Shown here: in pieces, positions 59,565 to 60,980 of the stretch
Layout of the letters: every line of letters starts with the position of its first letter
Position numbering within the stretch: position 1 is the stretch's first letter
Assembly (NCBI RefSeq): GCF_027922305.1
Contig: NZ_BSFK01000005.1
Location: forward strand, 806,001-870,000
Direction of reading: 5' to 3'
Source: Methylopila jiangsuensis
GTDB lineage: Bacteria > Pseudomonadota > Alphaproteobacteria > Rhizobiales > Methylopilaceae
Length of the DNA stretch: 64,000 nt
Made by a program: the position numbers and the translations under genes
Notes under the pieces: model-generated
Database searches by the model: none
Told to the model about the DNA's origin: nothing
The model's input: only the letters and a program-made list of their open reading frames with translations

Positions 59565-60980
59565 TCAGGCCCGGCCGATGACGGTCAGCCCGCCCATATA
59601 GGGCTGCAGCGCGGCGGGAACGGCGATGGAGCCGTCGTCCTGCTGGTAGTTTTCGAGCACGGCGACCAGCGCGCGCCCGACCGCGACGCCGGAGCCGTTC
59701 AGCGTGTGCACGAAGCGCGGCCCCTTGGCGTCGGCCGGGCGGTAGCGCGCGTTCATGCGCCGGGCCTGGAAGTCGCCGCAGACCGAGCAGCTCGAAATCT
59801 CACGATAGGCGTTCTGCGCCGGCAGCCAGACCTCGATGTCGTAGGTCTTCTGGGACGAGAAGCCCATGTCGCCGGTGCAGAGCGTGATGGTGCGGAACGG
59901 CAGCTCCAGCCGCTTCAGAACCTCTTCGGCGCAACCGAGCATGCGCTCGTGCTCCTCGAGGCTCTTCTCCGGCGTGGTGACGGAGACCAGCTCCACCTTG
60001 GTGAACTGGTGCTGGCGGATCAGACCGCGGGTGTCGCGGCCCGCGGCGCCGGCCTCCGCGCGGAAGCAGGGCGTGCCGGCGGTGACGCGCAGCGGCAGCT
60101 CGTCCTCGCCCAGAATCTGCTCGCGCACGAGATTGGTCAGCGAGACTTCCGCCGTCGGGATGAGCCAAAGGCGGTCCACGCCTCCCACCGAAGAAATAAC
60201 TGCCCTTTCTGAAAGGTATCGATTTTCTTGCGTGTCGTCTAAGCCGTGCGCAGCCCGATACTGGGCACCTGCAATTTTGACGGCTTCGTAGAATTCTTCA
60301 TTTGAAAAGCCCCGACCAGTTTGAAACTGATCGTCTTTAAACTTCGGCAGTTGCGCGGTGCCGAACATGGCCTCGTCGCGCACCAGCAGCGGCGGGGCGA
60401 TTTCGGTGTAGCCGTGCTCGGTGGTGTGCAGGTCCAGCATGAAGCTGGCGAGCGCCCGCTCCAGCCGCGCCACCTGGCCCTTCAGCACCGCGAAGCGCGC
60501 GCCGGACATGCGGGCGGCGGCCTCGAAGTCGATCAGGCCCAGCGCCTCGCCCAGCTCGTAATGGGCCTTGGCGTCGTGGATCGCCCGCGGCTCCCCCACC
60601 ACGTGGAGCTCCACGTTGGCGGTCTCGTCGGGGCCGTCCGGGACGGCGTCGAGCGGGATGTTGGGGATCTCGGACAGCGCCGCCTGCAGCTCCTGCTCGA
60701 TGGCGGTCTGCTCGGCCTCCGCCGCCGGCGCGTCCTGCTTGAGCTGCGCCACCTCGGCGATCAGCGCGGCCGCGCGGGCCTCGTCCTTGGCGGCCTTGGC
60801 CTGGCCGACCTCCTTGGAGGCGGCGTTGCGGCGCTCCTGCAGCGCCTGCAGCCGGCCGATGACCTCCCGGCGCCGCTCGTCGATGGCGATCAGCCGCGCG
60901 CTCTGGGGCGTCAGCCCGCGGCGGGCGAGGCCGCGGTCGAACAGGTCGGGATTGTCCCGGATCAGCCGAATGTCGTGCAT
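59565..60980 (-). CDS. serS: Seryl-tRNA synthetase with an extra insert
   Basis: A 471-residue class II synthetase. The coiled-coil tRNA-binding arm spans about residues 30-105. Catalytic blocks are present: [15 protein letters not shown] (the TAE serine loop), [22 protein letters not shown] (motif 2) and [22 protein letters not shown] (motif 3). Usual length is about 425-430. The excess lies between LPKF (211-214) and LIPTAEV (273-279), where 58 residues replace the roughly 20 of E. coli SerS. This insert has atypical base composition (see separate entry). The catalytic core appears intact, so the gene is likely functional. Confidence 0.96.
60187..60350. other. Low-GC in-frame island inside serS
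   Basis: Counting by hand, 60181-60360 is 89 of 180 G+C (about 49%), while flanking serS is clearly much richer. It encodes about residues 211-264, with codons otherwise scarce here such as TTA, ATT, AAA and AGG. Small palindromes lie inside (CCTTTC-T-GAAAGG at 60204-60216; CAGTTT-G-AAACTG at 60317-60329). Seven-base inverted repeats AACTGCC (60198-60204) and GGCAGTT (60346-60352) sit near its ends. The reading frame is kept. It could be a protein-coding palindromic element, a recombination patch or a foreign insert. Confidence 0.75.

What the first reader, a model, noticed from the sequence alone, without database searches (positions are those of the whole stretch)
60187..60350. Low-GC in-frame island inserted in an essential tRNA synthetase gene
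A roughly 165-base stretch of about 49% GC sits in high-GC serS and codes for the extra residues 215-272, which lie between the LPKF element and the TAE serine loop. The frame is intact and flanking motifs are normal, so it looks like a protein-coding insertion or recombination event tolerated on the enzyme surface. Short palindromes and 7-base inverted repeats near the ends raise the idea of a palindromic protein-coding element, as known in Rickettsia, but these could be chance.
Basis: partly seen in the sequence, partly recalled or inferred. Interest (0 to 1): 0.78.

Follow-up and report, generated by a model that had tools for sequence, protein, structure and literature searches.

The report
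Swapped hypervariable cassette inside seryl-tRNA synthetase
A core, normally conserved enzyme of protein synthesis carries at one fixed spot a small extra domain that is repeatedly replaced by unrelated foreign-looking sequence in closely related bacteria, as if the enzyme were a target in an unseen arms race.

Summary
In detail: the span is the lowest-GC 164-base stretch of the window. It encodes residues 220-271 of SerRS (window 60168-60323, minus strand) in place of a 6-residue loop. It is not a lone event. At this hairpin 5 of 13 congeners have 45-65 residue AT-rich inserts, one has 31 and 7 keep the short loop; the five are mutually unrelated. In the order, 37 of 249 genomes gave a match split there, and all 37 hold 31-95 residues. 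Species with 94-97% identical SerRS cores have unrelated inserts. The inserts are coding: 68 of 68 open, 9.5 expected after shuffling. Insert presence changes at least 40 times on a tree of 176 cores. Retained inserts have dN below dS in 8 of 8 pairs compared. HisRS shows similar swapping inside its insertion domain; ThrRS and ProRS do not. A Rickettsia-type palindromic element is not supported. Best reading: a repeatedly replaced cassette domain. An arms race with an antagonist of the synthetase is inferred, not shown.

The parts
59565..60980 (-). serS, seryl-tRNA synthetase, 471 aa
   Evidence: ORF and translation; Pfam Seryl_tRNA_N and tRNA-synt_2b; closest solved chains are SerRS
60168..60323 (-). 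the insert: residues 220-271, replacing a 6-residue hairpin loop; modelled as three helices on the hairpin
   Evidence: alignment with 12 congeners, composition, AlphaFold2 model, pLDDT about 60-83 in the insert
60324..60341 (-). last six conserved codons before the insert (FKDDQF), part of the AT-rich tract
   Evidence: lowest-GC windows reach 60355; averaged over insert-bearing genes identity and GC3 fall in these codons, but the effect is only suggestive on independent pairs
60144..60167 (-). codons WLIPTAEV that follow the insert, holding the TAE motif; host-like composition resumes sharply here
   Evidence: the name serine loop for TAE is taken from the finding and recall

Best explanation
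SerRS of many Hyphomicrobiales and of some other Alphaproteobacteria carries an exchangeable small domain on the hairpin just before the TAE motif. Shown: the domain is coding, sits at one fixed place, and is replaced wholesale by unrelated, mostly AT-rich sequence while the enzyme around it hardly changes. Shown for the pairs compared: while it is kept, it evolves under purifying selection. Inferred: replacement goes by recombination through the conserved flanking codons with donors not yet seen, and some inserts pass between species. Inferred: the domain is a shield or decoy beside the active-site entrance, kept changing because an antagonist of the synthetase (a phage protein or a rival's toxin) recognises this face. 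The similar swapping inside the HisRS insertion domain fits the same pressure on a second synthetase.
For: Unrelated inserts of 54, 81, 36 and 73 aa on cores 94-97% identical in genus g33; G188 against G088, 96% identical cores, 33 against 6 residues; 0 of 9 pairs with core identity of 0.90 or more have homologous inserts; at least 40 changes on the tree. Coding: 68 of 68 open against 9.5 expected, cysteine 0.2% against 2.9% in shuffled DNA. Upstream tract of about 60 bases replaced together with the insert in two of four g33 species. Second synthetase affected while ThrRS and ProRS are not. Phage contigs that carry their own SerRS exist.
Against: No antagonist, donor or insert homologue outside serS was found. 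Family A inserts show no lower synonymous divergence than their cores in 6 of 8 pairs, so recent transfer between species is not shown; old presence with many losses also fits the scatter. Most genomes of the order lack a long insert (212 of 249 gave no such split). SerRS on viral contigs whose loops were read has short loops. Seven of 68 inserts have higher GC3 than their gene. Position beside the active-site entrance is inferred from sequence and literature, not measured.
Confidence: 0.47

Rival explanations
1. Neutral tolerance: the hairpin tip accepts any soluble in-frame sequence, and recombination with foreign DNA leaves passengers there without benefit.
For: The same hairpin holds Insertion II of human SerRS, which is said to have a negligible role in aminoacylation (PMC10817482, passages; placement from the alignment limits). 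7 of 13 congeners do without an insert. dN in the insert exceeds dN in the core in 6 of 8 pairs.
Against: Very high turnover at one site; dN below dS in 8 of 8 pairs; protein-like composition even in the 44 most AT-rich inserts; no such internal insertions in ThrRS or ProRS of the genus.
Confidence: 0.28
2. Lineage-specific partner domain: each insert docks a protein or nucleic acid of its own host, for regulation or localisation of SerRS, without an arms race.
For: Helical mini-domains in both models and purifying selection; eukaryotic SerRS uses added parts for partners (PMC10817482, passages).
Against: Species with 94-97% identical SerRS would need wholly different partners; congeners lack any insert.
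Confidence: 0.15
3. Non-coding or removed insert: the segment is skipped in translation or spliced out.
For: Inserts interrupt a conserved gene at one place.
Against: 68 of 68 open in frame; codon-position periodicity; longest insert read is 95 residues, with no splicing-domain hit.
Confidence: 0.02
4. Rickettsia-type palindromic protein-coding element.
For: Size and in-frame place inside a conserved gene resemble it (features of that family are recalled).
Against: Single copy in the genome; palindromes at chance; no shared sequence among the 68 inserts.
Confidence: 0.02

Closest known systems
Insertion II of higher-eukaryote cytosolic SerRS (human G254-N261)
   Same: Extra residues in the catalytic domain near the active site; by the alignment limits (query 267 against human 262) in the same hairpin (PMC10817482, passages).
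   Different: Eight residues and fixed in its lineage; here 28-95 residues, unrelated between sister species.
Rickettsia palindromic elements (recalled)
   Same: In-frame insertions in conserved genes.
   Different: Those are repeated and palindromic; this is neither.
Conserved signature indels used in bacterial taxonomy (recalled)
   Same: In-frame indel at a fixed place of a conserved protein.
   Different: Those are conserved within a clade; here presence changes at least 40 times and sisters differ.
Hypervariable or swapped-domain genes such as restriction specificity subunits and immunity proteins (recalled)
   Same: Whole domain replaced between near-identical flanks.
   Different: Here the carrier is an essential aminoacyl-tRNA synthetase, and the selective agent is unknown.

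Membership tests
Rickettsia-type palindromic element | repeated copies in the genome | tested here: not met
   one match, itself, in the own genome
Rickettsia-type palindromic element | palindromic sequence | tested here: not met
   inverted repeats and palindromes at shuffle level
Rickettsia-type palindromic element | in-frame coding insertion | tested here: met
   open frame
Insertion II of eukaryotic SerRS | position in the catalytic-domain hairpin before the TAE motif | tested here: inconclusive
   alignment limits and residue numbers in PMC10817482 agree, no structural superposition was examined there
Insertion II of eukaryotic SerRS | conserved sequence and length | tested here: not met
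   8 residues in human against 52 here and 28-95 in relatives; phmmer of the insert against the PDB finds nothing
VbhA antitoxin (PF18495) | match above the curated cut-off | tested here: not met
   L007 insert 21.1 bits against 25.9; 4 of 68 inserts match weakly, best E 1.3e-4; the window insert matches no family
Intein | size and splicing domain (size limit of about 130 residues is recalled) | tested here: not met
   longest insert read 95 residues; no such Pfam hit in 68 inserts
Translational bypass element | no constraint on the reading frame of the insert | tested here: not met
   68 of 68 open in frame against 9.5 expected
Conserved signature indel | conserved within a clade | tested here: not met
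Hypervariable swapped domain (general kind) | whole replacement between near-identical flanks | tested here: met
Hypervariable swapped domain (general kind) | selection for diversity by an antagonist | not testable with these tools
   no antagonist or donor found

The most novel reading that the evidence does not exclude
Aminoacyl-tRNA synthetases (SerRS, HisRS) are targets of an undescribed antagonist in Alphaproteobacteria, and hosts answer by swapping shield domains beside the active site: an immune-like polymorphism in essential translation enzymes.
Probability: 0.36. Interest if true: 0.93.

Novelty: new variant of a known kind. Interest (0 to 1): 0.79.

Why it matters
Essential translation enzymes are taken to be conserved cores. 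Here SerRS, and to a degree HisRS, carries a segment that turns over between sister species while the rest stays 94-97% identical. If an antagonist drives this, it points to an undiscovered class of anti-synthetase weapons or phage proteins, and the inserts are a ready panel with which to look for it. It also warns that SerRS and HisRS alignments of these bacteria hold recombinant segments.

Tried and rejected
Family searches of the inserts: Pfam, NCBIfam, PHROGs and PADLOC on 68 inserts at E 0.05 gave 8, 6, 13 and 2 families. All but one had a single weak member; about 3.4 hits per library are expected by the nominal E-values, so PHROGs and Pfam are above that. No null control was run and the single hits were not followed up. 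VbhA (4 members) is judged a short helix likeness.

Donor searches: own genome, one copy; 397 order genomes with the window insert, only itself; IMG/VR, phages and plasmids with the window insert, none. Only the window insert was searched in these collections, not the other inserts. SerRS-like frames on 26 viral contigs found by pattern have short loops of up to about 20 residues; one is cut off by the contig end. E. coli plasmid hits: the one region read is chromosome-like, with ftsK, lolA and rarA neighbours.

Site-specific target: CTC as first Leu codon after the insert in 48 of 68 insert-bearing against 25 of 82 short-loop genes, but not significant on independent pairs, median p 0.21; rejected. 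AT-rich codons just upstream: 10.6 against 3.2 pairs, median p 0.09; downstream and control stretches showed nothing; suggestive only.

Random filler DNA: rejected by composition and frame.

General genomic phenomenon: 292 ORFs scanned, 14 islands flagged, 5 judged real by eye (serS four times, hisS once), 9 judged false extensions, wrong frames or a frameshift. The scan is not fully sensitive: it did not flag serS of G008 or hisS of G003. 267 ORFs, mainly from 400 kb of G004: 19 flagged, none judged internal, one doubtful at L334.

Rows dropped: 10 of 30 HisRS domains whose border motifs were not found by script; 5 SerRS not parsed, short loops by eye; five genomes with two matches (G072, G127, G145, G194, G229) were not counted as inserts because their best match was near full score, and were not read; duplicate loci were left out of the tree; one genome counts twice (L163 = L307), so 11 distinct. 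ThrRS was read in 12 of 13 genomes.

Full report
What is there. serS lies on the minus strand at 59565-60980 and encodes 471 residues in an intact frame. The reported span is the lowest-GC 164-base stretch of the window. Alignment with congeners places the extra residues at 220-271, window 60168-60323, between LPKFKDDQF and WLIPTAEV, where 7 of 13 species of the genus have six residues. Insert GC3 is 0.442 against 0.947 for the rest of the gene.

It is a hypervariable site. In the genus (13 genomes, all read) inserts of 52, 60, 52, 65 and 45 residues occur in G000, G004, G008, G007 and G001, and one of 31 in G009. The five long ones are AT-rich, GC3 0.42-0.58 against 0.86-0.92 for their genes, and no pair of them matches at E 0.01. 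In the order, 37 of 249 genomes gave a match split at this loop; all 37 were read and have 31-95 residues there. Shorter inserts that align in one piece are not in that number, for example about 20 residues in Bradyrhizobium. In the class sample of 115 genomes, five outside the order have 44-74 residues; the others were judged from the match coordinates only. Of 88 genomes of the phylum outside the class, none of the listed matches is split there; G443 had no match, and G436 and G461 had weak or partial ones (a capped list). Named relatives with inserts include records of Microvirga, Aquabacter and Mycoplana and MAGs named Afipia and Micropepsaceae. From the named matches the window genome most likely belongs to Hyphomicrobiales; no call names it.

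Swap, not drift. Four species of genus g33 have SerRS cores 94-97% identical and inserts of 54, 81, 36 and 73 residues with 11-19% identity. G188 and G088 have 96% identical cores, one with 33 residues at the loop and the other with six. Of 24 pairs of insert-bearing SerRS with core identity of 0.85 or more, 2 have homologous inserts at E 1e-3; of 9 pairs at 0.90 or more, none. On a quick tree of 176 cores, a set enriched on purpose for insert bearers, insert presence changes at least 40 times.

Where the inserts come from. In g33 the last 60 bases before the insert are also replaced in two of four species, while identity further out is 0.87-1.0. Averaged over 12 pairs (11 distinct genomes), identity falls to 0.58 and 0.80 in the two codon triplets before the insert, against 0.88 and 0.91 in insert-free pairs, and is 0.94 right after it. 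On independent pairs the upstream effect is only suggestive, median p 0.09. A family of 51-residue inserts (family A) occurs in 6 of 397 order genomes, always inside serS, and in named records. Its nine rows change state eight times on the core tree, and holding their cores in one clade is rejected, p-AU 2e-98 (quick tree and simple model; the group was defined by insert similarity beforehand). That fits transfer between species, but also an old insert lost or replaced many times. Synonymous divergence does not decide for recent transfer: the insert's dS is not lower than the core's in 6 of 8 pairs (short inserts, noisy values).

The inserts are real protein. All 68 first read are open in the serS frame, against 9.5 expected after shuffling; the script reported no locus as interrupted. 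GC by codon position is 0.62, 0.41 and 0.58. Cysteine is 0.2% against 2.9% in shuffled DNA for the 44 inserts with the lowest GC3 relative to their gene. In the 8 homologous pairs I chose, dN is below dS in all, while dN exceeds that of the core in 6: purifying selection, looser than on the enzyme. 51 of 68 inserts have GC3 more than 0.1 below their gene and 7 of 68 have it higher, so low GC is common but not universal.

Structure. An AlphaFold2 model of the window protein (mean pLDDT 88.5) makes the insert a three-helix extension of the hairpin, strands 220-224 and 268-273, at pLDDT of about 60-83. A family A protein, L165, also has three helices there, pLDDT about 60-93. The model matches solved SerRS structures as a whole. 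The human enzyme has Insertion II at G254-N261, near the active site and with a negligible role in aminoacylation (PMC10817482, passages only); the alignment limits put it in the same hairpin.

A second synthetase. Among 13 congeners the HisRS insertion domain (its name and place between motifs 2 and 3 are recalled) is 64 residues in 11, but 101 residues in G003 (GC3 0.59 against 0.89) and 72 in G004 (0.40 against 0.91). The middle of the domain differs, while its last 30 or so residues stay recognisable. Similar departures were read in G016, G017, G087 and G205; G088 differs in sequence from three congeners but not in GC3 (20 of 30 genomes parsed). ThrRS (12 genomes) and ProRS (13, one with an end frameshift) show none. 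AspRS has two allele types without a flagged low-GC island. In scans of 292 and 267 ORFs no other gene had an internal island that I judged real.

How it may work. Shown: a coding segment at a fixed place, replaced wholesale by unrelated sequence. Inferred: recombination through conserved flanks with AT-rich donors, and selection by an antagonist that recognises this face of the enzyme. Phage records that carry their own SerRS exist, which shows that phages deal with this step but no more. The main alternatives are neutral tolerance and lineage-specific partners.

Novelty. Ten searches of the held paper library were made. No listing describes a hypervariable or swapped insert in bacterial SerRS; I saw listings and abstract starts, and passages of one paper. 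The library lacks most subscription journals and all bioRxiv preprints. Swapped hypervariable domains are a known kind; their presence in SerRS and HisRS appears new.

Noticed in passing
L284, L286, L352, L353, L373, L376, L369 (hisS of relatives): The middle of the HisRS insertion domain is swapped, often for AT-rich sequence, in several relatives.
   Followed up: partly
L197:4877-5569: A 5.6 kb viral contig with a collagen-like gene carries the start of an alphaproteobacterial-type SerRS without insert, cut off by the contig end right after the loop.
   Followed up: partly
L335, L336, L337 (aspS of G012, G008, G001): AspRS of three congeners is of another allele type with about 19 extra residues and differing flanks.
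   Followed up: no
L273 (proS of G007): The C-terminal part of ProRS reads out of frame in G007, a genome given as 88% complete; possibly an assembly error.
   Followed up: no
G032:C28:4115-5413: A second, distant SerRS-like frame (31-43% identity) with one stop reported in the matched stretch.
   Followed up: no
L007 insert, L007:2092-2244: Weak resemblance to the VbhA antitoxin family, 21.1 bits against a cut-off of 25.9; 4 of 68 inserts match it.
   Followed up: partly
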